Shown: positions 4,396 through 51,712 of the stretch, piece after piece
How positions within the stretch are numbered: position 1 is the stretch's first letter
Layout of the letters: the number at the start of each line of letters is the position of its first letter
Assembly: GCA_026702845.1 (NCBI GenBank)
Contig: JADCLS010000017.1
Coordinates: 1-64,000 of the forward strand
DNA length: 64,000 bases
Reading direction: 5' to 3'
Source of the DNA: Candidatus Heimdallarchaeota archaeon
GTDB taxonomy: Archaea; Asgardarchaeota; Heimdallarchaeia; Heimdallarchaeales; Kariarchaeaceae
Made by a program: the position numbers and the translations under genes
The notes under the pieces: model-generated
What the model was told of the DNA's origin: nothing
Database searches by the model: none
Seen by the model: the letters and a program-made list of their open reading frames with translations, nothing else

Positions 4396-4452
4396 ATGGA
4401 AGAAATATGTCTCAAATAGGCACCTATATCCAAAATCCTCGATTTCTTCCAT
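4396..4452. repeat. 11-bp inverted repeat upstream of the recombinase operon
   Basis: ATGGAAGAAAT (4396-4406) is perfectly complementary to ATTTCTTCCAT (4442-4452) with a 35-base gap. It sits just upstream of the likely GTG start of the recombinase partner gene. It could be a recombinase-binding arm, an operator or a leader hairpin. The sequence supports only the symmetry. Confidence 0.6.
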
Positions 4453-4496
4453 ACTTTGTCATTATCTTAATATATCAAGACTGCATCCACGGGGCT

Positions 4497-5075
4497 GTGA
4501 AACACAATTTAAGCCCGATCAAATATCAGCTAAACATCAATTCGGATGAAAAACAGATGTGGTCTGACTTCGCCCGTGAGCACTTCCGGGGCAACATGGC
4601 ACGCATGATCAGAACACTGGTAAATCATGGTATCAATAACGGATATGTAGAGAACTCAGGAATACCAGAGGAAATGACCTCAGTCATAGAATCCATCGAG
4701 AATCAGACTGCTTCAACAGGTGAGCGCATAGGCTCTTTTCAGAGTGATCTGACTATCATCAAAACTTTACTATCCAAATTGTTAGAAAATCAGTCAAATT
4801 CGTATATGGCTTACCAGACCTCAATGAAACCCTCTCTTGAGGAGCTTGTGAGACGGGTTATCTTCAACTATGTGGATACCCAGCAACGGCTCGTGGATAT
4901 TGAGGAAATGTACTCCTACCTTCAGACCAGCTCTGATGAGGTCAGGCAGTTCCTATACACCGAAAATTCCAAACTCCCAGGTGGTGCGAAGATAGCCATT
5001 TCTCTTATGCTGGAAGAAGCCGTGAGAGAACTGGGGTTCAAGAACTCTCAAGAGGTAAATATTTATGACTTCTAG
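4497..5075 (+). CDS. Ribbon-helix-helix-like protein in operon with a tyrosine recombinase
   Basis: I place the start at the GTG at 4497 because GGGG lies just upstream and because the frame before it reads as low-quality sequence overlapping an inverted repeat. The product is then about 192 residues. The start region (KYQLNINSDEKQMWSDFARE, then MIRTLVNHGI) has the strand-helix-helix pattern of a MetJ/Arc-type DNA-binding domain, followed by a long helical C-terminal region. It overlaps the recombinase gene by 11 bases, so it may act as a recombination directionality or accessory factor. Codon use is GC-richer than in the neighbouring toxin genes. Confidence 0.6.
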   Translation: MKHNLSPIKYQLNINSDEKQMWSDFAREHFRGNMARMIRTLVNHGINNGYVENSGIPEEMTSVIESIENQTASTGERIGSFQSDLTIIKTLLSKLLENQSNSYMAYQTSMKPSLEELVRRVIFNYVDTQQRLVDIEEMYSYLQTSSDEVRQFLYTENSKLPGGAKIAISLMLEEAVRELGFKNSQEVNIYDF

Positions 5076-5946
5076 GCTTTCACGACGGCTCAAGAAATTC
5101 TCGGATGAGGAGCTTATTGAGTACTATCTCAAGAGCCGTGCTACACTCAGTCCACACACTCTCAAGAACTATCGTGTGTCACTTACGAGATTCTTCAACT
5201 ACTGCCATGAGCTGGGTATCTCCATGACCCGTGCAACTGAGATAGAAGTTTCTGATTTTATCAATCACTATCAATATAAATCAACCAAAGACTCATACAA
5301 GACTATTTTGAACATATTCTTCAAATGGTGTTTCAAACATCATCTGATGGATCAGAACCCGGCTGAGGATATTGTCATCAAAAAAGGCAAGAAGAAAAAA
5401 CAAACTTTGATGTCTGAGCTTGACTTTAAGGCAATATTGTCAAGGTGTGAGGGGTTAAGAGAGATGACCATTGTATCTATGCTTTGGTTCACTGGTATAA
5501 GAGCTAAAGAGTTGCGAATGATGAGAATAGAGGATATTGACCTTGAACGAGGTCTTATTCACATATCCAACTCAAAAACAATGACAGGTTATCGAACTAT
5601 CCCAATCCATCCAAACTTCAAAGGATTACTGAAGAAATACCTGCATAAGCGTAGAGCGATCAAAAGTCCTCAGAAATCACTTTTCCTGACAAAGAAAGGT
5701 TCTTCCTTTAGTGAGAGTACTATTACCCACCTGATCGATTTCTTGCAACGTGATCTTGGCCAATCCTCGAAATTTACATGTCATGACTTTCGCAGAGCTT
5801 TCATCACGAGATTATACCGAAAAACCAAGGATCTGGTACTGTGTCAGAACCTTGCTGGTCACTCATCAATAAAAACAACTAGAACCTATATTTTGGATGA
5901 TTTTGAGGAGAATATGAGAAAATTTAATGGTTTAAGTGATTTTTAG
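5065..5946 (+). CDS. Tyrosine recombinase/integrase (XerC/D-like)
   Basis: A 293-residue tyrosine recombinase with an N-terminal SAM-like core-binding domain (about 12-105) and a catalytic domain (about 110-293). The active-site set is complete: Arg146 in TGIRAKEL, Lys171 in the SKTMTG hairpin, His240 and Arg243 in CHDFRRAF, His266 in LAGHSS, and nucleophile Tyr275. It cuts and rejoins DNA through a phosphotyrosine intermediate. It could be a chromosome-dimer resolvase (XerA-like), but the coupled accessory gene, adjacent inverted repeat and toxin-antitoxin island fit a mobile-element integrase better. No att site was identified. Confidence 0.9.
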   Translation: MTSRLSRRLKKFSDEELIEYYLKSRATLSPHTLKNYRVSLTRFFNYCHELGISMTRATEIEVSDFINHYQYKSTKDSYKTILNIFFKWCFKHHLMDQNPAEDIVIKKGKKKKQTLMSELDFKAILSRCEGLREMTIVSMLWFTGIRAKELRMMRIEDIDLERGLIHISNSKTMTGYRTIPIHPNFKGLLKKYLHKRRAIKSPQKSLFLTKKGSSFSESTITHLIDFLQRDLGQSSKFTCHDFRRAFITRLYRKTKDLVLCQNLAGHSSIKTTRTYILDDFEENMRKFNGLSDF

Positions 5947-6684: not shown

Positions 6685-9600
6685 CTATAATGCTTTTAAA
6701 GCTCCTAGTTTATTCGCATGTACTAAAAACCAAAGTACGTGATAAATTAATCCAATGATATTCATTACCTTCATTGTGAGAAATATTTTAGGTCCTAAAT
6801 AATTTGCCAATACCAAAGCAAGTGCTAAATTTGTTCCACCCAATAATAATCCAGATGCTATATTTGGTGTTGATGATTGAAGGATATCTTTGGGAGCAGT
6901 AGGTTCCCAGAATCCATCAAGTAAATCCCACGCAAATGGAAGGAAATTTTCTGAAAATTTTGCATATCCAGGAGAAGAATCAGTAACAGTTCCTCCTAAA
7001 ATAATATCAAAAAGATATCCCATAGTTCCCGTTAAATGAGCATATGTCATACTAGCAAAATATAGCTTCTGTTCTTGAGTATCTAAATTTGTAATTGCAT
7101 TCAAATACCCTTTCCCTTCAATAATACTTGCAATAGAAAGAAATGCAATTGGCATCGCATAGCCGACTATACCAGCCACTTGACTAGCACCTGACCATCT
7201 TGGATTTGCTAAATAATCTAATCTTCTTCCTTGAACTATACCTTTATGAGGTTGTCCAGGGATTAATTCGACATCATAAGTAGATGATTCATGTGTAGGC
7301 TTATTACTTTGTTTTAAATGATAGGATAATAAAATTGCGGAAATAGGAAGAAGGAATTCAAGAATGGTTACAGCCGTTTGCACTCCATCTGCCATATCTT
7401 CTCCACCCAAAGTTTCAGTGACATCAAATGTTGGTAACAAGAAGATAGATGAAATCTTAAAATCTAAATTCATAAATTGAATGACGACATCTAAATTATC
7501 TCTGATAATTTGAATTTCTTTATCACCTATCATAACTCCATTAGCTGTCTCTATAATTGGAACTTCCGGTGTCATTGCGTCAATAATTTTTCCAAATATT
7601 TGTAATATTAATCTGAAAATTGTAACGAAATCATCAACCATTGGTGCTAAAATATTATCAGCAAAATATTCCCATCCCTCCTTCACACCAGCTGCAAACT
7701 CAGTAATCGTTGACTTGATCGCAGATAGTGCTCCAGAAACTCCAGAGAATACTCCAGCAACAACATCAACCAAAGTCCATCCAGAGTGGCCAATGACACC
7801 CATTAACCAATTCCATGTTCCTCGATAGTCGTCAGTATCAATGTACGTATCATGGATATAATCCACAAATACCAGAACTCCGGCCTTGGCCACGGCAGCA
7901 TAATTCATGGTTCCACCTTCCTCACCATAATTCAATGCATCTTTTAGGCTTGTATCAGATAGAATGACCTCAGCTAACTTATCTAATCGTTCCTCATTAT
8001 CAAACCAAGTGATAATTCGTTCAACTGAACCAAAACCATATTCTTCAAGGAGTGACCAAACACTATCTGCAATTTCAGTCTTTGTGATCCCCAAAACGGT
8101 GAATACTAGTAAATCGTATACTTTTTCCTTGATAAGTGACTTAAAATCGCCATACTGGGCCACAATTTTCTCAAGAAGAAGTACCGCATCAAATACTCTG
8201 TTCTCTGTGGGATTTTCTGCAGCAGCAGCATCCATGGAGGGTCGAGCAGAATATGGAATAGACGCAGCTGTTCTCTCATTTTCACTACTATCCTCGAAAT
8301 CCTGACCAATAACGGCATGAGATACATAATCTGAAGATAGAGGATAGGAAACAAATTCTTCCACACCATCTACCTGTTCAAATACCCCTACCTTACCATC
8401 AAAGTTTGGCATCTTGATATTCAAAGATGGCTGTTCATATAATGTTCCTAGAATTGGTTCTGATTCCCAGTCAAAACCAAATAGTAAACATGTGGCCTCA
8501 TCAGTGATAGATGGATTTGAACATACATATTGCCACCCGATAATTCCTGTATAGGCATTTCGCTCTGCCTGGACTTTAAACAGCACAGAAAGCTGACCTG
8601 ATAGATCCTCAATAACATAGGTTAATTTCTTATAGGAATCATTAGGATCGAGATTTGGGACTGTACTATCAATCAGTATTTGAGTATTAGAATCAAGGTA
8701 CATTGTAACTTGTGAATTTTCAGTAGTAATTACTTCAATCGTGACATCTGATCGATATCTACTCTCAAACACATAGCTGACCATGTAATTCTTAGTATGA
8801 GTAAGATCAATAGTATGATCCCCTCCGAAATCAGTAACAAGATAGTTTTGTTCTTCAGGATCATTAATTGCTGTTTTCCAGTAGCTTCCACCAGCAGATA
8901 ATTTCTCGCCTCCAGTTTCAGCATCCTTGTAATATGTGAAGGAATCAATTAAAGTACTGAAGCCATCAACATTCTGTGGTAATCCACCTATGGCAACCAT
9001 ATTACCAAGCCAGTAGTGGTTATCCTCAAAAGTTAATGGACTAAAGGAGGGATCCATGTGAGACCCCATTTCATCCACCTGATACCTTACATAAGAAACT
9101 GAGCTTTTGGATGCTGGGTAATCAGAAGCAGAATGGCCAGTATAGAGATTAATATATCTTGAATTGGAATTATCACCATCTAGATACTCGACAAATGCGG
9201 AGTTAAATGTAGGTTCATCTGGAGTTATACCTAAGCGTAATTTGGATGCATCTACATTGTGATCCATTTGCATATAGAAGTATTGCACATCTTGAGGATT
9301 TAAATCGATAATAGTCGAATAGGGATATCCAGTAGGAATTATTGTATCCAAAATACCTCCATAACTATCAATTCGATATAATTTAATATTGTCACCTGCC
9401 TCTGCATCTATAAATATCTCCACATCTAAAGTGGAAAGAGGTTTATTCATATAAAATTTATAAACTCCATTATCATTATACAATTCCAACTCACTACCAG
9501 TGTTACTAGTGGCTTCAAGATCGATGATAGAATTGAACCAGTAATCATTCCACTTAATACTGGGTGTATCAAGGTTTACACTAATAGTATCATAGATATA

Positions 9601-12600
9601 ATCCCTGAATTCCACAGTATATGGTCCTCTTTGTAGTACGGGTGGTTCATTGGTATTACATACACCATTTTCCCAGACACCATAGCAACTCATAAACTCC
9701 CAGAATGCATCCACAAGCCCAAATAATCCATTTGAATATGATGTAACAATATCCGAAACAATAGCATAATCAAGGTAGGTTTCTTGTTCAAATTTCAATG
9801 CAAAAGCACCCTGAGTAATTGATCCCCTAGCTGCATTCTCTGAGTAAAGAGCAGATCCTAGATTAGAGCTTCCTGAAATACTGGTATCACTCAAATATCC
9901 ACTAGAGGTGATAACCTGAGGAACAATTTTCACATCGTCTGCTACTGAGTAGCTTGCCACAGATACACTATCGTCTCCATCTGTTAGTGTGATCTCAAGG
10001 ATTTTTGATGGATTGGCACTGTAAGGATCATTGGGCAGTACTGAGAAATCTATAGAATATTGAGTTGCAGCATTGTAGCTTATACCACTGATTACCACAT
10101 TATCAAGTGTTTTCCAAATACCATTAACTAGTTTAACTCCATAGATAGATCCATCAATATCAACTGAATACTCAACATTGCGTGTACCTAGAAGATCACG
10201 GTTGTATATGGTGCTTGAAAAACTATAAGTGGGATAATCCTCTGTTGAAAGGGATTTATCCAATCCCATGCTATAACTTTGAGTAGATACATAGGATTCA
10301 TATAGAGCTGATACATCAGATGCAGATAACGCATGAGAAAAGACTACAAAATCATCTAATGAACCTGATAATTTCTGACCTGCATACCCAATACCTAATC
10401 TGTTGAAAGTGGTTGTACCAAGGTTATAAGTCATTGTTGATTGCCAGATACCATTTAGATACAATTTAGTATATGTGCCATCGTAGGTTAAGGTTATCAA
10501 ATTCCAATTATCTAGAAGGTCATCCATTGAAACACCGGATGAAAAACTGTTTGCAAAATATGCTCCTGCATCATTTTGAAATCTCAATCCATTATAATAA
10601 TATTCAAGATCTACACATTTATCATATGCTGTTGAGGATGAACCTAGTAATGGGAAGGATTTCCAAGTATCACTTCTGATTGTATAGGCAGTTGGTTTCA
10701 CCCAAATACCATAAGAAAATTGATTTTCAAGTACAATATTTTGACCCAGGTTGATATAGCTTAATCCATCTAAATCAACAGAACTTCCTTCCATACCACT
10801 ACTGAAATCTTCATTTCCATACCAACTTCCAACAGTACTAGAATAGGTTTCCTCAAGATTTCCATCTAGTGAATACTCATGAGTAATATACGCATAATTA
10901 TGACTATATAGCAAGGCTACTTGATCATTAGACAAAGCATAATCAAAGAATTTGGTCTCATCAAGATACCCATCCAATGATTGATTGGGATCAAATGTTC
11001 CACCAGCTGAATCTTGTTCCTGGCCAAGGATAATATATTGGGGATTATATGTATTCGTTGGAACTCCTGTTCTTGTCTGTACCAGATTGCCATTAACATA
11101 CAGTTGAAGAGTTGAACCAACTCGAATAACTGCGATGTGATACCAGGTATTATCTGTGAAAGTAGCGAAATAATCATACACTGACCCTGCAAAATGAGTT
11201 CTGATTTTGGCATTATCGATATAAACCATGAATGCATTAGTTGACCAACCATCTTGATGTACACTGATAAATGTATTAAAACCACCTGCCCCATGATCTA
11301 GATCATCACTTTTCACCCATGTAGCATACGTGAAGTCCTTAGTGTTGGCCATAACACTGCTAGGAACCTCTAAGTATTGAGATGTACTCCCGTCAAGCTC
11401 AATTGCCTGACCCCGGCTTCCAGAGCCAAAGTTAAGAGGACTTCCTCCAGTCTCGACATAATTATCAATTCTACCATAATTTGAAGTAGAAGAATATGCT
11501 ATTCTCTGTTGCCAATAAATCTCAATTTTATCGGTTTCAAGCATACCTGAGTATGTATTAGAAATAGATCCAATAGTTCCTGAGATACTCAGAGTTAAAG
11601 AATTATCTGCATTGAATGTCACTGTGAAATGCCCAGTACCACTAGTTTTGTAATAATTTTGAATGGAATGAGTGCTCGTTACGACTCCATTGGCATCAAA
11701 TCCTCTAGTATAACTTCTAATCCACGAACCAGACCAAGCATCATAAACTGGTGCAGCCCAGAAAGTATTGTATCCAGTTGCAGTATTTGTACCAAATATC
11801 GCTAGATAACCCATTTTCCCACTTTGAATATAATATGAAAAATCAAAATCGATATTTGTTGTTGCTGTACTGATCTCTTTTTTGTACCATACATTATCGT
11901 AATCTGATGTGGATCCTCCTGGATATCGCCCTTCTAGATACCCTCCTGTCTCTGTGAAAGTTGAATACACATTTCTAGTATATTCCCATTCTGGAGCTTT
12001 CACTCCATCATTAAAATCATCAACGAAACCACCACTATGTGAAATAGCATCATAATTGTTCGCCCTATCTGACAATGTATTATCATATGAATAATCCACA
12101 ATTGGTTTTGGATTATTTACATCATTATTGATCTCAAGAGATGATGTTTCCTTACTAATTGATGCAAGACTTGCCAAATCGGTTTTACTTGAGGATACGT
12201 AGATACTATCTACTAATAATGCTCCAGTTCCAGATTTTTGAAATGAAATTTGTGTGAATGCTCCGTTAGATACAGAATACGCATAAAGGTCGATGATATA
12301 ATAATGCCATTGATTGTCTAGGTTAATAACGAGATCATCAAGATTACTGGCAGAATCTAATACATTTATTGTTTTTATCGATCCTCCAATCATCACTTGT
12401 AAAGAGAATCCTGTCAAGCTGTAAGCCTTTGCAGCAAAACCTAGGTAATGATTAGAATCATCAATCACAGTATTAACTTTATACCAGTCTGGAGATGTTG
12501 TGCTTCCAGCACTAATTGATTTTGATCCTATGTAAGCATCGGTTGATTCTTGAGTACCGGCTGACCCGCTAATTTTCAAATCATTTAAAGTTTGATCCTC

Positions 12601-14670
12601 AAATACTAACACTTGACTAGGTGTGCTATCTGATACGTGTAGGCTAGGATTTACTTGATACATATCTGCATATATAGACCGATATGTTGTTTCAATTCTT
12701 AACTTTGGATTCAATAAATCTGCATATCCACTTGCACTAGCTTCATAAATGAAATCGGCATCATCAGGAGTTGAAATCGTAAGTATTCCCAGATTGGCTA
12801 TAAAACTTATTGATAAGTAGTAAGGTCTGTTATCCTCAAGTGAAACTGAGTCAATGGTGGCTGTTCCCTTATTAGTAAGTACTTTGAGTACATTATCCTC
12901 AATAATCAAACCAAAAGTACGTGTATCATAGCTTGATGGCCTCAAAGAGGAACTAGGTGTTCCAATTAGCTTTATTGTTGTACTTGAGCTGCTTTGAATA
13001 CCACTCAACTTGAATAGTAATGTAAACTGAGATTCTTTGGGTCTACTAGTAACGGACGATTCTTCAATCCATTCTCCATGGTTTATTGTAACGAAACCAT
13101 CCTTATTTTCAGTATAAGGATGATGATTCCATCTTGATGATAATGATGATGTCGATCCACTTAATCCTTCACCGAATTCTTCTAACATACCATCATATTC
13201 TCCCATCGAGAAATAAAAAGTATCATCATTTAAGGTTGAAATCTCCTGCCACGTACTCTGAATATGATTTTCATAGTCATGTGGGGTTCCTGCTACCGGG
13301 AAATATGAATTCGGTATAACTTCACCTAGATAGTCTCCAACACCGGAAAAGCTTGATTCTCCTGTTGCTGGTGAGTAGTTAATATCATTAACATAGAGTG
13401 TTTCATCACCATTGAATTTCTTAATATATTTGAGACTAAGATCAGTATTTCCATGATCAATAGTATATTCTTTGACAGTAGTGATATCAACCTTTCCTAA
13501 TGGAATGGTGTTATTATTCTTGGTTAGCATTACAGTATGTGTTTTCATTACTGTAGGTAAAATATAGGTACCCGATGCAAGTAGATTTTCTAAAGATAAA
13601 ACGAAACGGGTATTCAGATATGTTAGCCCTCTGTATCCTGTGAGAACTTGGTTAGGATTCTGTTTCTCAAAGAATCCCAGAACAGAATCTACTCCATGAT
13701 GTTTATACTCATCTAGGAGAAAACAGCTGTGAAGATTGGTATGTATCAATTTAGATATTTGATTAACAGGTGTTTGTTGTAAGAAATTATCAAATACCCT
13801 ACCATTCATAATTGCCAGGGATTTGGGATCATCATCTCGATGTAATAATATACCATGAGCCTTGGCAGAACTCACACCATGTGCAACAAAGGTTATTCCT
13901 ATAGATTTGACCTTGTTATTCATTTCAGCTTCTGCAAGTAGATTGATGATATTTTGAGGAGTTGCATACTCATTTACCATCATCACGTAATATGAAGATG
14001 TTTCAACTAACCAGCTTTCTAATCTGGAATAAACTTGCTTCCATACCTCATTCTCTTGTAGTTTCTCAATACTACGACTTTTGTAATCAGAAACAAAAAC
14101 CACAATCCCCAGATGACCCTTGTTCACCTTGTTATCACTGTTTTCAATGATAGTATTGAGCTCTGAATTGAAATTAATAGTATAATCAATAGCATTGGAA
14201 TCCAAAAATACCTTACCTGAACTTGTAACATTGACATAATGGTAGAGATTTTGAAGTAATCCAGGAATAAATACCTCACTTTCATCATATTTAACTTTCT
14301 CTTCCAATATATTTGTTGGTTGAGAAAGATATGTTGTCTCTTTGAATTCAATTTGGGTTGTCATTGGATTGGAATCATCATAATTTTCTACAGAATATCC
14401 TGCATCAATCCTATCCAAGGCTGCTTCTAAATCTTGTTCTGCATAGAATCGCTCTGATATGAGCCGTGATTGTTCATCTATCTTAACAGTCTCCAGACTC
14501 TGATCTAATATCTTCATAGCTAGATCTGGATCACTGATACCCTCAATGGGCATTGATAAGTATTCAACACTATCCTGATTTGCATACACAGTTGATGGAT
14601 AGTATTCTAATCCCAAAATTAGAACTGAAAGAAATAGAAAAATTCGTAGTTTAGATTTGATATGTCTCAA
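6685..14670 (-). CDS. Giant secreted/membrane-anchored protein: caspase-fold-like, LamG-like and C-terminal membrane domains
   Basis: A 2661-residue protein. It begins at a TTG about nine bases after a strong GGAGG ribosome site, with a signal-peptide-like N-terminus (KLRIFLFLSVLILGLEYYPS). Around residues 190-360 a Rossmann-like region contains VAHG (His264) and HSC (Cys316), the order and spacing of a clan CD (caspase/gingipain/CHAT-like) His-Cys dyad. Two LamG/concanavalin-like domains follow at about 1090-1250 and 1290-1460 (ATWVKSDD, YHIAVIRV, LDGYLDETKFF). Several more beta-rich segments precede a C-terminal part with about four or five hydrophobic helices (about 2430-2661). It is likely displayed on the cell surface. 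Peptidase activity is inference; adhesion or glycan binding is equally possible. Confidence 0.75.
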   Translation of the reverse strand: MRHIKSKLRIFLFLSVLILGLEYYPSTVYANQDSVEYLSMPIEGISDPDLAMKILDQSLETVKIDEQSRLISERFYAEQDLEAALDRIDAGYSVENYDDSNPMTTQIEFKETTYLSQPTNILEEKVKYDESEVFIPGLLQNLYHYVNVTSSGKVFLDSNAIDYTINFNSELNTIIENSDNKVNKGHLGIVVFVSDYKSRSIEKLQENEVWKQVYSRLESWLVETSSYYVMMVNEYATPQNIINLLAEAEMNNKVKSIGITFVAHGVSSAKAHGILLHRDDDPKSLAIMNGRVFDNFLQQTPVNQISKLIHTNLHSCFLLDEYKHHGVDSVLGFFEKQNPNQVLTGYRGLTYLNTRFVLSLENLLASGTYILPTVMKTHTVMLTKNNNTIPLGKVDITTVKEYTIDHGNTDLSLKYIKKFNGDETLYVNDINYSPATGESSFSGVGDYLGEVIPNSYFPVAGTPHDYENHIQSTWQEISTLNDDTFYFSMGEYDGMLEEFGEGLSGSTSSLSSRWNHHPYTENKDGFVTINHGEWIEESSVTSRPKESQFTLLFKLSGIQSSSSTTIKLIGTPSSSLRPSSYDTRTFGLIIEDNVLKVLTNKGTATIDSVSLEDNRPYYLSISFIANLGILTISTPDDADFIYEASASGYADLLNPKLRIETTYRSIYADMYQVNPSLHVSDSTPSQVLVFEDQTLNDLKISGSAGTQESTDAYIGSKSISAGSTTSPDWYKVNTVIDDSNHYLGFAAKAYSLTGFSLQVMIGGSIKTINVLDSASNLDDLVINLDNQWHYYIIDLYAYSVSNGAFTQISFQKSGTGALLVDSIYVSSSKTDLASLASISKETSSLEINNDVNNPKPIVDYSYDNTLSDRANNYDAISHSGGFVDDFNDGVKAPEWEYTRNVYSTFTETGGYLEGRYPGGSTSDYDNVWYKKEISTATTNIDFDFSYYIQSGKMGYLAIFGTNTATGYNTFWAAPVYDAWSGSWIRSYTRGFDANGVVTSTHSIQNYYKTSGTGHFTVTFNADNSLTLSISGTIGSISNTYSGMLETDKIEIYWQQRIAYSSTSNYGRIDNYVETGGSPLNFGSGSRGQAIELDGSTSQYLEVPSSVMANTKDFTYATWVKSDDLDHGAGGFNTFISVHQDGWSTNAFMVYIDNAKIRTHFAGSVYDYFATFTDNTWYHIAVIRVGSTLQLYVNGNLVQTRTGVPTNTYNPQYIILGQEQDSAGGTFDPNQSLDGYLDETKFFDYALSNDQVALLYSHNYAYITHEYSLDGNLEETYSSTVGSWYGNEDFSSGMEGSSVDLDGLSYINLGQNIVLENQFSYGIWVKPTAYTIRSDTWKSFPLLGSSSTAYDKCVDLEYYYNGLRFQNDAGAYFANSFSSGVSMDDLLDNWNLITLTYDGTYTKLYLNGIWQSTMTYNLGTTTFNRLGIGYAGQKLSGSLDDFVVFSHALSASDVSALYESYVSTQSYSMGLDKSLSTEDYPTYSFSSTIYNRDLLGTRNVEYSVDIDGSIYGVKLVNGIWKTLDNVVISGISYNAATQYSIDFSVLPNDPYSANPSKILEITLTDGDDSVSVASYSVADDVKIVPQVITSSGYLSDTSISGSSNLGSALYSENAARGSITQGAFALKFEQETYLDYAIVSDIVTSYSNGLFGLVDAFWEFMSCYGVWENGVCNTNEPPVLQRGPYTVEFRDYIYDTISVNLDTPSIKWNDYWFNSIIDLEATSNTGSELELYNDNGVYKFYMNKPLSTLDVEIFIDAEAGDNIKLYRIDSYGGILDTIIPTGYPYSTIIDLNPQDVQYFYMQMDHNVDASKLRLGITPDEPTFNSAFVEYLDGDNSNSRYINLYTGHSASDYPASKSSVSYVRYQVDEMGSHMDPSFSPLTFEDNHYWLGNMVAIGGLPQNVDGFSTLIDSFTYYKDAETGGEKLSAGGSYWKTAINDPEEQNYLVTDFGGDHTIDLTHTKNYMVSYVFESRYRSDVTIEVITTENSQVTMYLDSNTQILIDSTVPNLDPNDSYKKLTYVIEDLSGQLSVLFKVQAERNAYTGIIGWQYVCSNPSITDEATCLLFGFDWESEPILGTLYEQPSLNIKMPNFDGKVGVFEQVDGVEEFVSYPLSSDYVSHAVIGQDFEDSSENERTAASIPYSARPSMDAAAAENPTENRVFDAVLLLEKIVAQYGDFKSLIKEKVYDLLVFTVLGITKTEIADSVWSLLEEYGFGSVERIITWFDNEERLDKLAEVILSDTSLKDALNYGEEGGTMNYAAVAKAGVLVFVDYIHDTYIDTDDYRGTWNWLMGVIGHSGWTLVDVVAGVFSGVSGALSAIKSTITEFAAGVKEGWEYFADNILAPMVDDFVTIFRLILQIFGKIIDAMTPEVPIIETANGVMIGDKEIQIIRDNLDVVIQFMNLDFKISSIFLLPTFDVTETLGGEDMADGVQTAVTILEFLLPISAILLSYHLKQSNKPTHESSTYDVELIPGQPHKGIVQGRRLDYLANPRWSGASQVAGIVGYAMPIAFLSIASIIEGKGYLNAITNLDTQEQKLYFASMTYAHLTGTMGYLFDIILGGTVTDSSPGYAKFSENFLPFAWDLLDGFWEPTAPKDILQSSTPNIASGLLLGGTNLALALVLANYLGPKIFLTMKVMNIIGLIYHVLWFLVHANKLGALKAL

Positions 14671-29379: not shown

Positions 29380-31170
29380 GTGAGAGAAACAGTCAACCCT
29401 TTTCAAGAGATCCCAATACGAGTACCATTCCCAGGTAAGAAGGAATTTTGGGTACTCATGGGTGAGGAATATGATCGTTTTCTAGAGGTTTTCGATATCA
29501 GTTGGCTCCAAGATCTCACCGTACGGGATAGCATTGTTTCTTATGCCATTCTATTATACAAATTAGCTAGAAAACTAAACCGAGAAAATGCATTAGCTAC
29601 GAAGGATGATTTATTACTCTGGCTAAATATTGGTCTTGATTATCCTGTTTCTATTGATTTCTTGAATACCATTCTGAGAGATAAGCTACATATCTACCTT
29701 ATAGTGAAACCTATTCGTGATCTGCTTGGAAATGAGAAAACCAGACATTTCAGACCAACGGATAATCATATAACCATACCTCATGAGTATTTGGCATCAT
29801 TATCATTATTTCAGTACCCCTATTACCTACTCTCTTCAATTGCAGAGAAAGCAGAGCTAGAGGGATACGAATCAGCATTGAATTTCTTGAAAGCATTCAT
29901 GAGATTGACTCAATCACTCGATGCTTCACTACAGGGAAAAATCAAGAAGCAACCTGCAGATTTTATCGAGCGATTAATTTCACTAATTAATCCCAATATG
30001 AAACAACCAGAGGTTGATGTTCAAGGGATAGTGATGCGATCTATCATAAAGTATGCCTATGTCCGGCAGAATAATCACTCTTTAGAGCTGAATTACAAGC
30101 TGAAGGATGATCTTAGCTTATCTAATTATCAGCGGAGTGAAATATTTTTGCAGATACATCAGGAGTTGGATATCGCAGTTGATCCTGAGTTTATATATAA
30201 TGGCCTTCAATCAATTGGAGATGTAATTGAATTTTTTGAGTGTAAATTACAGGAGGAACCAATCCCAGATCATCTTATTTTCAAAGAAGAAGAGGTTACT
30301 GGCATTTTAGGTAAAATCCTAAAATCGTTTACTAAAGAGAAAAAAATCAAATTGAAACCAATTTCCAAGCGTAAAAAACTCCCTGCACATACATTCACCT
30401 TCAACTCAATGCAAACAGAATTAAAGCGGCTGAGTTACAAATTTTACAAGAAATTTCCAAATAAGGATGACCAGCAGAGATTATTGGCTGCCAATGATAT
30501 TGTATTACCTGAAATCCTGACTTACTCCTATGCTAGCTCGATCAAATCACTTGCTGGCTATCGAAATAACTCCTATACTTACTATGATAATATATCATTC
30601 ATGAGCAATATCATCTTTACTTCAATCATAGTTGGGTGTATTAAAGATCCTGAGCTGCCTCAATTGGGGTCAACCATTAGACGAAATGAGGAGGATATTC
30701 TTCTATTCCTAGAAAAACATGGGATGCTCGAGGAGTACAGAGCATTACTTCAATCCAATAAAAATGTATATGCTGATAATTTGCTAAACCGTATATTGAA
30801 ACTACCTAAATCCCTATATGATGAGTTTTACGCCATCTATCTTCCCCGGAAATTGTGCTCAAAATTACACAGTTTTATTATGCTTCAAATATACGAAGAG
30901 ATTACATCATTTGAAAATTATGGGATTGTCAAAGTATATCCCAATGATTGGCTTCTCATCTATTTCAAATTACTCATTAAATGGAATCTTGTCAATTTTG
31001 AGAACAGTGATATTCTCTGGCCAAGTGAACCTTATCAATTCTTGAATCTATCAAGAAATTCAAAATTAGTCACTCATTATCGAAGATTAGTAACGAAATC
31101 CTGTAACTCATGTGGTGATGCTAATCCATTGCAATCAAGATTCTGCGAGAATTGTGGCATTGAATTTTGA
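29380..31170 (+). CDS. Hypothetical protein with C-terminal zinc ribbon
   Basis: A 596-residue protein starting with GTG (MRETVNPFQEIPIRVPFPGK). It is mostly alpha-helical, with a basic linker around residues 320-340 (KEKKIKLKPISKRKKL), and ends in a zinc ribbon with four cysteines (CNSCGDANPLQSRFCENCG). No family is recognised for the first 560 residues and no transmembrane helix is seen. The zinc ribbon suggests nucleic acid or protein binding. It lies directly upstream of three small structured RNA genes, on the same strand, with only about 40 bases between its stop and the first RNA; a functional link is speculative. Confidence 0.7.
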   Translation: MRETVNPFQEIPIRVPFPGKKEFWVLMGEEYDRFLEVFDISWLQDLTVRDSIVSYAILLYKLARKLNRENALATKDDLLLWLNIGLDYPVSIDFLNTILRDKLHIYLIVKPIRDLLGNEKTRHFRPTDNHITIPHEYLASLSLFQYPYYLLSSIAEKAELEGYESALNFLKAFMRLTQSLDASLQGKIKKQPADFIERLISLINPNMKQPEVDVQGIVMRSIIKYAYVRQNNHSLELNYKLKDDLSLSNYQRSEIFLQIHQELDIAVDPEFIYNGLQSIGDVIEFFECKLQEEPIPDHLIFKEEEVTGILGKILKSFTKEKKIKLKPISKRKKLPAHTFTFNSMQTELKRLSYKFYKKFPNKDDQQRLLAANDIVLPEILTYSYASSIKSLAGYRNNSYTYYDNISFMSNIIFTSIIVGCIKDPELPQLGSTIRRNEEDILLFLEKHGMLEEYRALLQSNKNVYADNLLNRILKLPKSLYDEFYAIYLPRKLCSKLHSFIMLQIYEEITSFENYGIVKVYPNDWLLIYFKLLIKWNLVNFENSDILWPSEPYQFLNLSRNSKLVTHYRRLVTKSCNSCGDANPLQSRFCENCGIEF

Positions 31171-31182
31171 AATTAACTACTT

Positions 31183-31191
31183 ATTATAATA
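31183..31191 (+). promoter_or_regulatory. TATA box of kink-turn RNA copy 1
   Basis: ATTATAATA is centred about 25 bases before the first base of the RNA copy 1 terminal stem (31212), the usual archaeal TATA spacing. It overlaps no coding sequence. Confidence 0.5.
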
Positions 31192-31211
31192 AATTCAAAA
31201 TCCGGTAGATA

Positions 31212-31412
31212 CTCTGATCAATGAATAACTTCCTCAGTGGTGATGGTTTTCATGTTCATCTGTATGTCATGGTTCTGGCCAATTGTAGTCAAGCACTGTA
31301 TTTGTCATAACAATCACAAGGACGATCACGACCTCACCACCATCCATCAGATGAGAAGAGGTCGACCCGATGGATCACAATATACCTAATCGGGCAAATG
31401 ATGAGATTAGAG
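31212..31412 (+). ncRNA. Kink-turn small RNA, copy 1 (long form)
   Basis: The ends pair as CTCTGATC (31212-31219) with GATTAGAG (31405-31412), including one G-U pair where copies 2 and 3 have G-C, which supports a conserved stem. Next come a three-base bulge AAT, then GA opposite GA and two A-T pairs: the layout of a standard kink-turn, the target of L7Ae. Inside are a 7-bp hairpin CGACCTC/GAGGTCG (31329-31364) and CCCGAT/ATCGGG (31366-31394), matching the CCCG/CGGG hairpin of the other copies. A T-rich stretch (ATTTTCTTTCTTTT) follows. No ORF of quality overlaps. The function is unknown. Confidence 0.7.
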
Positions 31413-31450
31413 CATAATTTTCTTTCTTTTAGCACATTCTTCTCATCTAA

Positions 31451-31459
31451 GCTTATAAG
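31451..31459 (+). promoter_or_regulatory. TATA box of kink-turn RNA copy 2
   Basis: GCTTATAAG is centred about 28 bases before the first base of the copy 2 stem (31483), between the T-rich end of copy 1 and the start of copy 2. This supports independent transcription. Confidence 0.55.
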
Positions 31460-31482
31460 TAGAAGCTCGACTATCCATTCAA

Positions 31483-31600
31483 CCCTGATCGATGAATGTG
31501 AAACGAAAGTACTTTGCTTTCCTTCAGATGAATGATAGATTCATCTGAACAAAGCAAAAATCTACACCCGTACACATCCGGGCATACGATGAGATCAGGG
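31483..31600 (+). ncRNA. Kink-turn small RNA, copy 2
   Basis: CCCTGATC (31483-31490) pairs with GATCAGGG (31593-31600). A bulge GAT and tandem GA/GA (31494-31495 and 31591-31592) complete the kink-turn. The centre is a long hairpin: TTTGCTTT (31513-31520) with AAAGCAAA (31551-31558), and above a small bulge TTCAGATGAAT (31523-31533) with ATTCATCTGAA (31539-31549) around the five-base loop GATAG. A shared 3' box with a CCCG/CGGG hairpin (about 31567-31582) is nearly identical to copy 3. A T-rich end (TTTTCTCTTTTTATT) follows. Confidence 0.8.
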
Positions 31601-31636
31601 TAATTTTCTCTTTTTATTCGCAGCATATCAAGTAGA

Positions 31637-31646
31637 TTTATATTTT
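31637..31646 (+). promoter_or_regulatory. TATA box of kink-turn RNA copy 3
   Basis: TTTATATTTT lies about 25 bases before the first base of the copy 3 stem (31666), the same spacing as for copies 1 and 2. Confidence 0.5.
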
Positions 31647-31665
31647 CTTACCTAATAGTTGCCTT

Positions 31666-31785
31666 GTCCCTGATCAATGAATATCAAACGCTTTGTGTGT
31701 AAATACACTACCAATTTGGTAGAAATTGGTACTTATTTACGCAGCTACACCCGTACACATCCGGGCATACGATGAGATCAGGGAC
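31666..31785 (+). ncRNA. Kink-turn small RNA, copy 3
   Basis: GTCCCTGATC (31666-31675) pairs with GATCAGGGAC (31776-31785), ten base pairs. Bulge AAT and tandem GA/GA (31679-31680, 31774-31775) form the kink-turn. The central hairpin is unrelated in sequence to copy 2 but has the same shape: TGTGTAAATA (31696-31705) with TATTTACGCA (31734-31743), a small bulge, then TACCAATTT (31709-31717) with AAATTGGTA (31723-31731) around loop GGTAG. The 3' box from about 31745 to 31783 matches copy 2 base for base. The T-run GTTTTTT follows immediately. Confidence 0.8.
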
Positions 31786-31915
31786 GTTTTTTGAGTTTAC
31801 CAACTTGTCATTTTGATTTTTGAATGCTGACATTAAATTAATCATTTGGTCATTTTTCTTCCATTAGTTTCTCGAAACTAGAAGTATTATTATACTAGAG
31901 AAAAATAGATTTATT

Positions 31916-32179
31916 ATGCAAAAGGTAATTCTGACATCGGTTCTGAATACTGGTACCAAGATAAAGATATTACACTCATTATACCATCATGAGGATGGGT
32001 TGAGTATTACATCCTTATCTGTAACAATTCATGAGAAAATATCGGACGTTAGAACTGCTCTCCATGATCTATCTCAAAACTTGCTGATAAAAGAAATTGG
32101 AAGAAAATATATGATAAATCACTCCTATGCCTACAGTAAACCAATTACCAATTTCTTCAAACAGTGGGAGAAATTGTGA
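31916..32179 (+). CDS. Small winged-helix DNA-binding protein
   Basis: An 87-residue protein with an ArsR/MarR-like winged helix: a helix (GTKIKILHSLYHHEDG), a turn-helix (SITSLSVTIHEKISDVRTALHDLSQ) and a short wing (LIKEIGRKYMINHS). No metal-binding cysteines are present. It is the first gene downstream of the three kink-turn RNAs, 130 bases away, with a TATA-like TTATTATACTAG near 31888. It probably regulates transcription; the target is unknown. Confidence 0.65.
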   Translation: MQKVILTSVLNTGTKIKILHSLYHHEDGLSITSLSVTIHEKISDVRTALHDLSQNLLIKEIGRKYMINHSYAYSKPITNFFKQWEKL

Positions 32180-48713: not shown

Positions 48714-50132
48714 TTATAGCTCATCGAAAAAATTATTTAAATTAGATTTTTTTTTAGTTTTTCTTTTCTTGATCAATTTTCTTTTTACTGCTTCATTCAT
48801 CTTATATTCTTCTGGTATTTCAGCGGAAGGTTCCTTTGGTGCTTCTTTAATATCTTCTTTTTTCTTTTTCAAATCTTTCCCATGAGGATAATCATAGGTA
48901 TCCAGTTCGATTTTTTCAGGTACTTGAAAGCTTGGATCTTGAATAACCCTCTGTAAAAAAGTGTAGAATATGTGCAGATTATGAAATCCCCTGTTTCTAT
49001 TCCGATTGTTCCCTCTGAAAATAATGATGTCTATTCCTAATTGTCTACATGCCGCACAATCACATTGCTCCCATGGTTTATCCTCCAATGTTGCTCGATA
49101 CCTAGAATAAACCGATGGTGCCTTTGGATTAATACTATCCTCAAACATCTGAAATGCCTCTGCAACCTCATGAGCTGTCGATTCATTATGTTCAAATGCT
49201 TTCATTATCGAGAGTAGGTTTTCTTCAGCTTCCATCAATTCATCCAAGGTAGCTAAACCTTCATCTAATATCTTCCTATATCGAGTTCCCAATTTGTTCT
49301 TCCGTATCAAAGGTAATCTGATTGCAGTATATCCCTGATAATTAACTGAGGAGTAATTCTGTCGTGCAGATAACCAAGATTTTCTCAACTCAGATGCAGA
49401 ATCAAAGCTGGTGATTCCTGCCTGCATGAATTTATCCACATGTCTAAGTCTAGATACTCCAAATAGATGAATATCCAGATTTTGCTCTCTTTTGGCATTC
49501 TCTTTTTCTATAATCGGCTTCAAGGTCTTTAGGATTGATAGAAGCTGCTCAGTCTGAGTTTTTGCTACTCCACCGATGGCAATATATTCATAATTCAGAT
49601 CTAAGATATCTAGTAGTGATTCTTTGTATGATTCGGGATCCCAGCCTTGGATTGCACCAACTGGAGTGAAGGAATAATCATCCTCTTGCCATTGGTGTAT
49701 AAATTTCTCAGCATTGGTTTTGGTCAATTCTAGCCGGAAATGATTTTCCTCTTGGTCACTTGCTATGGTAAGATGATCAACAGATACACCAAGGTCTACT
49801 TTGATATCTTTATAGTATCGTAAAACTTCTTTTGTTGTATATGGGGGAACTTTTTCTTTGTAATATCCCCATGCACCACAATCCCCAAAAATCGGTCCAT
49901 CAAATCGAAGGTAGTGATGAGCTCCATGGTCGGAAATCTGCTTATATTTCGTCTTATTCTCCTCAATTTTCACTTTTGACAGTAGGATCCCATCATAAAT
50001 CCGATTAGGAAAAATTTCATGTGCATATACTCGCTTGCTCCCTGATAACCTCTGTTCTGTGGCATAATCATACTGATCATAAACCAAATCATCCCACTCA
50101 GGGATGAAAAATTTTAACTTTTTCATGATCAT
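48714..50132 (-). CDS. DpdA-like 7-deazaguanine transglycosylase
   Basis: A 472-residue TGT-fold enzyme. The start FFIPEWDD resembles DpdA proteins. The first catalytic Asp is in FGDCGAWGY (Asp84, aligned to TDSGGFQ of tRNA transglycosylases), the nucleophile in ITSFDSAS (Asp244), and the zinc site is QCDCAACR (Cys357, 359, 362) with His384 in RGFHN. The archaeal PUA domain of TgtA is absent; the tail is lysine/proline-rich and ends in a Leu/Asn-rich basic peptide. DpdA inserts preQ0 into DNA in known clusters; a tRNA substrate is the alternative. It overlaps the next gene by four bases (ATGA) and belongs to one operon with it. Confidence 0.75.
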   Translation of the reverse strand: MIMKKLKFFIPEWDDLVYDQYDYATEQRLSGSKRVYAHEIFPNRIYDGILLSKVKIEENKTKYKQISDHGAHHYLRFDGPIFGDCGAWGYYKEKVPPYTTKEVLRYYKDIKVDLGVSVDHLTIASDQEENHFRLELTKTNAEKFIHQWQEDDYSFTPVGAIQGWDPESYKESLLDILDLNYEYIAIGGVAKTQTEQLLSILKTLKPIIEKENAKREQNLDIHLFGVSRLRHVDKFMQAGITSFDSASELRKSWLSARQNYSSVNYQGYTAIRLPLIRKNKLGTRYRKILDEGLATLDELMEAEENLLSIMKAFEHNESTAHEVAEAFQMFEDSINPKAPSVYSRYRATLEDKPWEQCDCAACRQLGIDIIIFRGNNRNRNRGFHNLHIFYTFLQRVIQDPSFQVPEKIELDTYDYPHGKDLKKKKEDIKEAPKEPSAEIPEEYKMNEAVKRKLIKKRKTKKKSNLNNFFDEL

Positions 50133-51712
50133 TCCAATGGGAATTCAAAGGTGATCTCCTTCTGAGACCTATTTATGGTATCATCAAGGGTCAGATAAAC
50201 ATTCAAAGATTCATCTGCATCAATGGCAGATAATGAAATAATTCTGATCTTCTCCTCGTGAAAATCCCTATCCATAGATGCTGGAATGAAGGAAATTTGT
50301 AAAGTATCATTCTGGACTGCTATATTATTACCAAGTGCATTAAAGATGGATAAAGAATAATCTTTGTTAGGGCCGATACTCAGGCGTATATTCTGCAGAG
50401 GATATGAAGTGCGGTTTCTCAGTGACAATATCAGCTCCGTCTGTGTTTCAGATTCTCTGAAGTTATCAAGAGATACATCCAGAGAAATATGACTATTGAT
50501 TTTCGATTTTCCTTTTTTCTGTTCCTTTGATCTTGGTGTATATTCTGATTTTACATTCTGCAATTCTGGATTTTCTACCCACTTGACAAGCGTTTTTACA
50601 ATTGATAATCTTGGAGAGTTGATTAATGCAGAATCATACCCTGCCTTCTCCTGTTTGGCACGAATTTTTGAAATGAGATGAGCCTTCAATACTTTCATCG
50701 AATCCTCATTATTCTCATTCAATTCTTCAAGAAGCTCTGTAATCATGTAATGATACTTCTTGGCCAACTTAATACGATCATCATATTTTTCCACCCATTC
50801 TTTGCGGGTCTCACTCTTCTTTGTATTCACAGTATTTAGGCCACGAAGTAAATCCTCTGTAAATTCATCGATACTATCGAATTTCTTTACAAATGCTTCG
50901 ATCTCCTTCCTACTCTCATCACTTAAGTCTTGAGACATAGTTGAATTATCTTCCTCATATTTATTAATGCTTTGGAGAGATGAGTAATTTTGAAATATTT
51001 GATTATTGGAATTTGTAATTGGTATAGTTCTTTCATAATTACCTGATATTTTTGATCTCCACCAGTCTGTAAATGATATTTCTTTTTGCTCTGTTTCGAG
51101 GGCATAATTCAGTAACAGTGATCCCTTATTGATGAGATGATTACCCAGAGGTTTGATAAAAGTATTAGAATCGATCTCTAGTAGGAAATTAGGATCTATA
51201 ACCAGGGTTCCCTGTTCACTTTTAATTTTTCCATCATTACTAAACGCTACAACTTGTGTTGCCTTAGCATTGAGAAATTCAAGATTACCAATTGCATCCA
51301 AATACTTGCCTCCCAGGCAGAGATACACCAGATCGTATCCTGTAGGAAGTCTCTGCATTCTATCTCTGATGCCAAGATTTGATGCCATTTTTATTATCTC
51401 ATTCTTCCCTTTATTAGAGAAAGTGCACTCATATGGTGGTATCAGCTCATCATCCCGCAACAACCCAAATCCGGCTGAAATTATATAGTAATCGACTTGA
51501 TGTTTTTTACGAAGAATATTAACAGTTTCTTTAACTCTTTTTGCCTGAGTTCCAATATAGAGGTCTGCAGCTGGTGTTAATAAATGATTATATTGCTTTA
51601 TTGCATAAGCTCTTTTCTCTACTGAGTTTAGATCTTCACATAGGGGTTGATCATCATGAGCAAGAATTTTTTTCTTACCACATGAATTGATAACTAATAT
51701 TCTCTGTCTCAC
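50129..51712 (-). CDS. YaaA/DUF6884-like protein with C-terminal beta-sandwich, partner of DpdA-like enzyme
   Basis: A 527-residue protein starting at a GTG behind a GAGG ribosome site. Residues 1-200 have the YaaA/DUF6884 pattern: VINSCGKKKI with Ser-Cys and Lys, the DLYIGTQAKRVKE segment, YYIISAGFGLL, DLVYLCLGGKYL. Residues 270-400 are helical and basic; 420-527 form a predicted beta-sandwich (ISLDVSLDNFRE, LILSLRNRT) like an adaptor appendage. In bacterial dpd clusters a YaaA-related protein (DpdC) converts preQ0 DNA to its amide form. The same role is plausible but inferred. The gene is immediately upstream of and overlaps dpdA. Confidence 0.65.
   Translation of the reverse strand: MRQRILVINSCGKKKILAHDDQPLCEDLNSVEKRAYAIKQYNHLLTPAADLYIGTQAKRVKETVNILRKKHQVDYYIISAGFGLLRDDELIPPYECTFSNKGKNEIIKMASNLGIRDRMQRLPTGYDLVYLCLGGKYLDAIGNLEFLNAKATQVVAFSNDGKIKSEQGTLVIDPNFLLEIDSNTFIKPLGNHLINKGSLLLNYALETEQKEISFTDWWRSKISGNYERTIPITNSNNQIFQNYSSLQSINKYEEDNSTMSQDLSDESRKEIEAFVKKFDSIDEFTEDLLRGLNTVNTKKSETRKEWVEKYDDRIKLAKKYHYMITELLEELNENNEDSMKVLKAHLISKIRAKQEKAGYDSALINSPRLSIVKTLVKWVENPELQNVKSEYTPRSKEQKKGKSKINSHISLDVSLDNFRESETQTELILSLRNRTSYPLQNIRLSIGPNKDYSLSIFNALGNNIAVQNDTLQISFIPASMDRDFHEEKIRIISLSAIDADESLNVYLTLDDTINRSQKEITFEFPLE

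What the first reader, a model, noticed from the sequence alone, without database searches (positions are those of the whole stretch)
31212..31785. Three tandem small-RNA genes sharing a kink-turn-closed terminal stem
Three units (31212-31412, 31483-31600, 31666-31785) have the same 8-10 bp terminal stem (CTCTGATC or CCCTGATC with GATTAGAG or GATCAGGG), then a 3-base bulge (AAT, GAT, AAT), then tandem GA opposite GA and two A-T pairs. That is a textbook kink-turn of the L7Ae/15.5K type. The G-U pair in copy 1 replaces the G-C of copies 2 and 3, so pairing is kept where sequence changes. The layout is not box C/D (no internal C'/D') and not H/ACA (no 3' ACA tail). I know no described archaeal RNA with this form. 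The sequence shows structure and duplication; the kink-turn call is from established rules; function is unknown.
Basis: partly seen in the sequence, partly recalled or inferred. Interest (0 to 1): 0.85.

Follow-up and report, generated by a model that had tools for sequence, protein, structure and literature searches.

The report
Asgard kink-turn small RNA family
Three neighbouring genes in an Asgard archaeon appear to make small RNAs of an undescribed family, each closed by a sharply bent stem, and a relative of both the RNA and the protein gene beside it sits in a second genome, so the two probably work together in a way that is still to be found out.

Summary
Three units (31212-31412, 31482-31601, 31665-31786, + strand) share a terminal stem, a 3-nt bulge ending in U, tandem G.A pairs and a CGGG hairpin. 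A covariance model of units 2 and 3 found one clear relative, V, in 58 genomes of the class (56 bits, E 3e-8). V keeps the kink-turn with compensatory stem changes and has a different central hairpin that still pairs. Each copy has a TATA-like element upstream and a T-rich tail.

New here: in both genomes the RNA starts 42 and 49 nt after the stop of the same orphan gene (596 aa, zinc ribbon; 36% identity over 112 aa). Next to V lies a primase-like gene with a nuclease-like N-terminus; in other Asgard genomes its neighbours are possible, unproven relatives of the orphan protein. No Rfam family matches; the conserved segments have no exact complement in the rRNA loci tested.

My reading: structural RNAs, probably L7Ae-bound, partnering the orphan protein. 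The RNA gene family is well supported, the partnership moderately, the function only inferred. Unit 1 shares only the ends.

The parts
31212..31412 (+). Unit 1: diverged copy, 201 nt, same terminal kink-turn stem and a CGGG hairpin, long unrelated interior
   Evidence: fold z +0.35; not listed by models R1 or R2
31482..31601 (+). Unit 2: small RNA, terminal kink-turn stem, variable central hairpin, CCCG/CGGG hairpin
   Evidence: (z -6.7)
31665..31786 (+). Unit 3: small RNA, same plan, unrelated hairpin sequence
   Evidence: (z -4.1)
31491..31497 (+). Unit 2 bulged kink-turn strand GAT-GA-AT (box C-like)
31589..31592 (+). Unit 2 non-bulged kink-turn strand AT-GA (box D-like)
31562..31600 (+). 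39-nt block identical in units 2 and 3: core CTACACCCG..CGGGCA plus kink-turn and stem
   Evidence: 23 of 26 core bases kept in V
31178..31192 (+). TATA-like element of unit 1
   Evidence: TATA 20-34 nt before the stem in 4 of 4 copies, 13% background in unannotated window DNA
31449..31463 (+). TATA-like element of unit 2
31634..31648 (+). TATA-like element of unit 3
31602..31621 (+). T-rich tail of unit 2 (terminator-like); units 1 and 3 have one at 31413-31432 and 31787-31806
   Evidence: at least 11 T in 20 nt in 4 of 4 copies, 9% background
29380..31170 (+). Orphan 596-aa protein (P0001), C-terminal zinc ribbon; a homologue lies just upstream of the RNA in genome G034

Best explanation
31212-31786 holds three genes of an undescribed small-RNA family. 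Shown from sequence: a terminal stem closed by a standard kink-turn; in units 2, 3 and V also a conserved 5' segment (AAACG), a central hairpin whose sequence is free but whose pairing is kept, and a conserved CUACACCCG-loop-CGGGCA hairpin before the kink-turn closes. Inferred: each copy is transcribed from its own TATA-type promoter and ends in a U-rich tail; the host L7Ae binds the kink-turn and locks the ends; the conserved core is a docking surface for the orphan zinc-ribbon protein encoded just upstream, forming an RNP. The variable hairpin lets copies share one protein while presenting different surfaces, so I read the RNA as a structural or adaptor RNA and not as a base-pairing guide. 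The primase-like gene next to V suggests that the RNP works on nucleic acids, perhaps in a mobile or defence-type cassette. That last step is the weakest.
For: Covariance hit V in G034. Across four copies stem pairs 3, 6 and 7 are changed on both sides, and pairs 9 and 10 as well where they pair; on three rows 3 pairs have both-side changes, 0 in each of six slid controls; 12 of 28 pairs predicted by RNAalifold have a both-side change. Tandem GA and the U before it are kept in 4 of 4. Central hairpin in units 2, 3 and V with unrelated sequence. Synteny: the orphan-protein homologue (36% over 112 aa, E 1e-20) ends 49 nt before V, the window gene 42 nt before unit 1. The chosen RNA core is 23 of 26 identical to V. 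TATA-like element and T-rich tail in 4 of 4. The primase-like gene is in 5 of 227 Asgard genomes; it starts about 180 nt after V, and in G054 and G085 the gene beside it resembles the orphan protein weakly.
Against: Only one relative outside the window in 227 Asgard genomes, so the covariation rests on four copies and few events; 11 of 500 shuffles reach the count of 3. Pair 4 is A.G in V, pair 9 is broken in unit 1, pairs 10 and 11 in unit 2, and the second inner pair is C.C in V. G034 is fragmented and the orphan gene there is cut by the contig end, so V's homology covers the C-terminal part only. The G054 neighbour resembles the N-terminal part only: BLASTP best E 0.06, no match between it and the V-locus protein, 0.002 with it as query, but with P0001 as query six natural ORFs (from loci fetched because they matched P0001) score higher and one of 500 shuffles is close; in a second control a zinc-ribbon protein scores the same. 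No RNA was recognised at G054, G085, G103 or G106 (R2, filters off, best 18.9 bits, E 0.17). The primase-like gene is not in the window. Unit 1 has no measurable inner structure. No expression data.
Confidence: 0.55

Rival explanations
1. Atypical box C/D-type guide RNAs in which the internal C'/D' motif has been replaced by an ordinary hairpin, still methylating a target through the stretch upstream of the D-like box.
For: The bulged strand (AUGAAU, AUGAAC in V) and the other strand (AUGA, CUGA in V) resemble box C and box D at the kink-turn positions (box consensus recalled); C/D box sRNAs were 59 of 107 L7Ae-enriched RNAs in Sulfolobus (PMC5539422, passages).
Against: No D'-then-C' motif at up to 2 mismatches in units 2, 3 and V (unit 1 has two weak candidates); the would-be guide is folded in a conserved CCCG/CGGG hairpin; the conserved segments have no exact Watson-Crick complement in the 23S loci of two and the 16S locus of one genome of the class; none in 5 tRNAs, too few to tell; no Rfam C/D family reached threshold (SNORD46 and SNORD47 appear far below theirs).
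Confidence: 0.13
2. 3'-UTR elements of the orphan gene: L7Ae or the protein itself binds the kink-turn stems to control the mRNA.
For: The RNA lies 42 and 49 nt after the stop codon in the two genomes; L7Ae regulates its own mRNA through a kink-turn in Sulfolobus (PMC5539422, passages).
Against: Three tandem copies each with its own TATA-like element and T-rich tail; the autoregulation case uses the 5' UTR; the conserved core is far larger than a kink-turn.
Confidence: 0.15
3. Small mobile DNA elements or folded recombination sites with inverted-repeat ends (MITE- or attC-like), not RNAs.
For: Inverted ends, variable middle, tandem arrangement.
Against: Kink-turn asymmetry with both G.A pairs kept in 4 of 4; sense strand folds better than antisense by z-score for unit 2 and V, not for unit 3; TATA-like element and T-rich tail on one side only; no target-site duplication seen by eye; the only tyrosine recombinase among the window proteins scanned is 25 kb away at 5065-5946.
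Confidence: 0.06
4. A Ro60/Y-RNA-like RNP: adaptor RNAs next to the gene of their protein, tethering the protein to effectors and gating it.
For: Same genomic logic as recalled for Ro and Y RNAs: conserved terminal stem, variable rest, RNA genes beside the protein gene.
Against: The orphan protein matches no TROVE/Ro family in Pfam; Y RNAs, as recalled, have no kink-turn.
Confidence: 0.11

Closest known systems
Archaeal box C/D sRNA
   Same: Terminal stem closed by a kink-turn with box C- and D-like strands
   Different: No internal C'/D' in units 2, 3 and V, a long hairpin inside, conserved core instead of free guides, no exact rRNA complement found for it, and longer than recalled for typical archaeal C/D sRNAs
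L7Ae-bound small RNAs of unknown function in Sulfolobus acidocaldarius (6 in PMC5539422, passages read)
   Same: Non-coding RNAs bound by L7Ae (here only predicted), function open
   Different: Sequences not compared; model R2 found nothing at E <= 0.1 in 398 genomes of the phylum of a Thermoproteus genome
Asgard eukaryote-like SECIS element (PMC11227280, passages read)
   Same: AUGA/GA kink-turn core in Asgard archaea
   Different: The SECIS model has a 7-15 bp upper stem on the quartet and sits in selenoprotein 3' UTRs; here one or two pairs lead into a junction
Ro60-Y RNA RNP (recalled)
   Same: Protein gene and small RNA genes side by side, conserved end stem and variable interior
   Different: No TROVE match, kink-turn instead of the Y-RNA stem

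Membership tests
Standard kink-turn (L7Ae type) | Canonical stem, 3-nt bulge, tandem G.A pairs, short inner stem | tested here: met
   4 of 4 copies have the bulge and both G.A pairs; inner pair 1 is A-U in 4 of 4, inner pair 2 U-A in 3 of 4 and C.C in V
Standard kink-turn (L7Ae type) | Bound by L7Ae/15.5K | not testable with these tools
   needs gel shift or CLIP; U at the last bulge position in 4 of 4 fits (the preference is recalled)
Box C/D sRNA | Boxes C (RUGAUGA) and D (CUGA) at the ends | tested here: inconclusive
   AUGAAU/AUGA in units 1-3, AUGAAC/CUGA in V: box-like, not consensus
Box C/D sRNA | Internal D'-C' motif | tested here: not met
   no candidate at up to 2 mismatches in units 2, 3 and V; two weak ones in unit 1
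Box C/D sRNA | Guide complementary to rRNA or tRNA | tested here: inconclusive
   conserved segments have no exact complement in the 23S loci of G034 and G005 and the 16S locus of G005; G-U pairing not tried; no 16S found in G034; only 5 tRNAs; the window's own rRNAs are not held
H/ACA sRNA | ACA/ANA box near the 3' end | tested here: not met
   3' ends are the closing stem and T-rich tail; no Rfam hit
SECIS element | Upper stem of 7-15 bp on the G.A quartet, in the 3' UTR of a selenoprotein gene | tested here: not met
   one or two inner pairs, then a junction; upstream gene ends TGA-AAT-TAA, no read-through frame; model from PMC11227280
Y RNA/Ro60 RNP | TROVE-domain protein partner | tested here: not met
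   Pfam scan of P0001 to E 10 lists zinc-ribbon and zinc-finger families only; a fold comparison was not possible
Any Rfam 15 family | Score at or above the gathering threshold | tested here: not met
   0 in the window; 7 listings below threshold for the units and 1 for V

The most novel reading that the evidence does not exclude
A previously undescribed RNA-protein system of Heimdallarchaeia: an orphan zinc-ribbon protein, its dedicated L7Ae-bound kink-turn RNAs, and an archaeal primase-like protein with a nuclease-like N-terminus acting together on nucleic acids, with the variable hairpin setting what each RNA copy does.
Probability: 0.2. Interest if true: 0.85.

Novelty: new variant of a known kind. 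Interest (0 to 1): 0.62.

Why it matters
Asgard archaea are the closest known prokaryotic relatives of eukaryotes. In the nine paper searches that ran (two of them listed only part of their hits) I saw no title or abstract start about an Asgard small-RNA family of this kind. Kink-turn RNPs (box C/D, U4, SECIS) are central to eukaryotic RNA biology; a lineage-specific kink-turn RNP beside its likely protein partner would show how such RNPs are recruited to new jobs. The claim is directly testable by RNA-seq, gel shift and pull-down.

Tried and rejected
Viral contigs: three DNA patterns and the orphan protein gave nothing. The genome contigs pattern gave 0, but it demanded a CTGAT end that V lacks, so it says little. 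Pattern of the core with up to 3 mismatches in 227 Asgard genomes: 25 places in 21 genomes, only G034 exact; the backwards control gave 20, so most others look like chance. My first kink-turn check of these places was centred wrongly for loci cut by a contig end and is withdrawn; redone on the real places, V stands out (13 columns, 2 of 200 random places of its own locus as high); the next is L136 in G213 (8 columns, 3 of 200), which 25 tests make unremarkable but do not exclude; the other 23 are ordinary. R2 matches at E 0.08-0.9 in 7 further Asgard genomes (8 places) and a second place in G034: of these I saw alignments for L110, L111, L112 and L118 only, and none has the core. P0001 matched 24 of 227 genomes at E <= 0.01; after G034 (8e-17) the next is 2.5e-4 with stops, mostly short matches at the zinc-ribbon end. 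The G054 neighbour protein as query found only itself in 227 genomes. Antisense action on neighbouring genes: 15 comparisons against 25 shuffles each, lowest 1 of 25 as low (unit 2 hairpin against the 87-aa gene), not clear. rRNA guide: no exact complement of the conserved segments. A GC-rich stretch at L153:1716-1850 as the RNA of the G054 locus: fold z -1.5, no shared motif, left open. PADLOC, NCBIfam, PDB sequence search and phage tblastn gave no identity for the orphan protein; the primase-like protein was sought in plasmids only (none).

Full report
What is there. The + strand between the orphan gene ending at 31170 and the small gene starting at 31916 carries three units. Each begins with a stem strand ending CTGATC, a 3-nt bulge ending in T, GA and AT, and ends with AT, GA and the complementary strand. 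Units 2 and 3 share 39 identical bases at their 3' side (31562-31600 and 31745-31783) and the 5' segment AAACG, while their central hairpins have unrelated sequence. Unit 1 shares the ends and a CGGG hairpin but has a GA-to-GA distance of 180 instead of 95-97 and no structure beyond shuffles (z +0.35).

Chance. A kink-turn-closed stem alone is cheap: 60 dinucleotide shuffles average 7.6 per window, at most 14, and the window has 14. The three units differ from such noise in being adjacent and sharing sequence: the 17-base 3' motif matches three times at 0 mismatches where 0.67 are expected at up to 3 mismatches (pattern written from the units).

A relative elsewhere. No whole genome is held for the window. 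A tRNA-guanine transglycosylase encoded in the window is closest to one unnamed protein (57%) and then to proteins named Heimdallarchaeaceae (48 and 47%), which led to the class of Heimdallarchaeum endolithica. Model R1, built from units 2 and 3 only, found one clear hit among 58 genomes of that class: G034, 56.3 bits, E 3e-8; the two other hits at E <= 1 had 0.30 and 0.52. V reads AACCTTATTC-AAT-GAAC ... CTGA-GAAGAAGGTT. Compared with the units its stem pairs 3 and 6 are changed on both sides; unit 1 changes pair 7; pairs 9 and 10 vary, with pair 9 broken in unit 1 and pairs 10 and 11 in unit 2; pair 4 is G-U in unit 1 and A.G in V; both G.A pairs are kept in all four. On the three-row alignment A5 (unit 1 left out because its interior cannot be aligned) 3 pairs have both-side changes, 0 in each of six slid versions, and 11 of 500 shuffles reach that number. 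RNAalifold predicts 28 pairs, 12 with a both-side change, many of them in a central hairpin that MAFFT aligns loosely. V folds at z -4.3. Model R2 (units 2, 3 and V) found nothing further below E 0.077 in 227 Asgard genomes, nothing at E <= 0.1 in 398 genomes of the phylum of a Thermoproteus genome, drawn from a larger group, and nothing at E <= 1 in 3 other archaeal genomes. The large searches use stricter filters.

Gene signals. In all four copies a TATA lies 20-34 nt before the stem (background in unannotated window DNA 13%) and at least 11 of the 20 bases after it are T (background 9%). The TATA interval was chosen after looking, so this is supportive only; archaeal promoter and terminator rules are recalled.

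The linked protein. The gene that ends 42 nt before unit 1 encodes 596 aa; two searches of 5.8 billion proteins return only itself (one search scored the best 7994 candidates), and Pfam sees only a C-terminal zinc ribbon, below its cut-off. In G034 the frame ending 49 nt before V is its homologue (36% over 112 aa, E 1e-20), cut at its N-terminus by the contig end. Among 227 Asgard genomes only G034 has a convincing match. The chosen RNA core (CTACACCCG to CGGGCANAC) is 23 of 26 identical, better kept than this protein, as one expects of an RNA whose shape matters.

A third component, less certain. About 180 nt after V starts a 396-aa protein with an archaeal small-primase-like domain (PF01896 E 1e-5, just below cut-off; PDB PriS E 3e-6 with the family profile) and an N-terminal region with conserved E, D and ExK residues that looks like a PD-(D/E)xK nuclease (my reading; no library confirmed it). 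It occurs in 5 of 227 Asgard genomes, one of them a fragment. In G054 the divergent neighbour (530 aa) resembles the N-terminal part of the orphan protein: with it as query the orphan protein ranks first after its own copies (E 0.002, 190 natural ORFs and 500 shuffles), but with the orphan protein as query it is one of several weak hits: six ORFs from loci fetched for their match to P0001 score higher, and the best shuffle has 9.1 against its 9.6 bits; in an independent set of 315 ORFs a zinc-ribbon protein scores as high as it. BLASTP gives E 0.06 at best, and it was not matched to the V-locus protein, which keeps only the C-terminal part. A profile of the two ranks the primase neighbour of G085 (493 aa) next after the V-locus protein, 13.0 bits, E 0.002, best of 1000 shuffles 5.9; that neighbour is homologous to a gene 4 kb from the primase gene in G103 (BLASTP E 4e-7), but the G103 protein itself scores like shuffles, and the reverse profile finds neither P0001 nor the G054 protein. 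So one fast-changing protein family beside the primase gene in four genomes is possible, not shown. None of the loci in G054, G085, G103 and G106 shows the RNA.

What it does. The conserved unpaired segments and the freely changing but always paired central hairpin argue for a structural or adaptor RNA bound by protein. A base-pairing guide would need a target: the conserved segments have no exact complement in the 23S loci of G034 and G005 or the 16S locus of G005. Antisense pairing with the neighbouring genes is not clearly beyond shuffles. The kink-turn with U as last bulge base and box C/D-like strands fits L7Ae binding (rule recalled; archaeal L7Ae binds such motifs in many RNAs, PMC5539422, passages read). 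I therefore commit to an L7Ae-assisted RNP of these RNAs with the orphan protein: that the RNAs are genes is well supported (I would say 0.9), L7Ae binding likely (0.75), the partnership moderate (0.6), and the job of the RNP open.

Membership. It lacks the internal motif of box C/D sRNAs in units 2, 3 and V, is not H/ACA, not a SECIS element (PMC11227280, passages read), and reaches no Rfam 15 threshold. It works like other kink-turn RNPs only in its predicted L7Ae-bound end. Of PMC4158269 I read passages on archaeal primase and nuclease genes in mobile islands; of all other papers I saw search listings only.

Limits. Four RNA copies from two genomes; one fragmented assembly; no structure prediction; no metagenome scan; no transcripts.

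Noticed in passing
L084:4940-6127 (-), L153:260-1471 (-), L154:2190-3401 (+), L155:7089-8309 (-): Rare Asgard protein with an archaeal small-primase-like domain and a conserved E, D, ExK N-terminal region, in 5 of 227 genomes counting one fragment in L156.
   Followed up: partly
L154:645-2120 (-) and L155:2309-3196 (-): Two genes near the primase-like gene in G085 and G103 are homologous to each other (E 4e-7) and match no Pfam family over its cut-off.
   Followed up: partly
window 48714-51712 (-): DpdA-like tRNA-guanine transglycosylase next to a DUF6884 protein, apparently a split version of the roughly 670-aa fused form of bacteria.
   Followed up: no
window 31243-31389 (+): The interior of unit 1 holds an ATG-to-TAA frame of 48 codons with several His and Cys (by eye); not shown to exceed chance.
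   Followed up: no
window 6685-14670 (-): Single 2661-aa open frame, not examined.
   Followed up: no
window 4407-5946 (+): Weak Translin match (PF01997, below cut-off) in a gene that overlaps the start of a tyrosine recombinase gene.
   Followed up: no
L153:1716-1850: GC-rich (about 50-53%) intergenic stretch between the primase-like gene and its neighbour in G054, with a T-rich end; candidate RNA, fold z only -1.5.
   Followed up: partly
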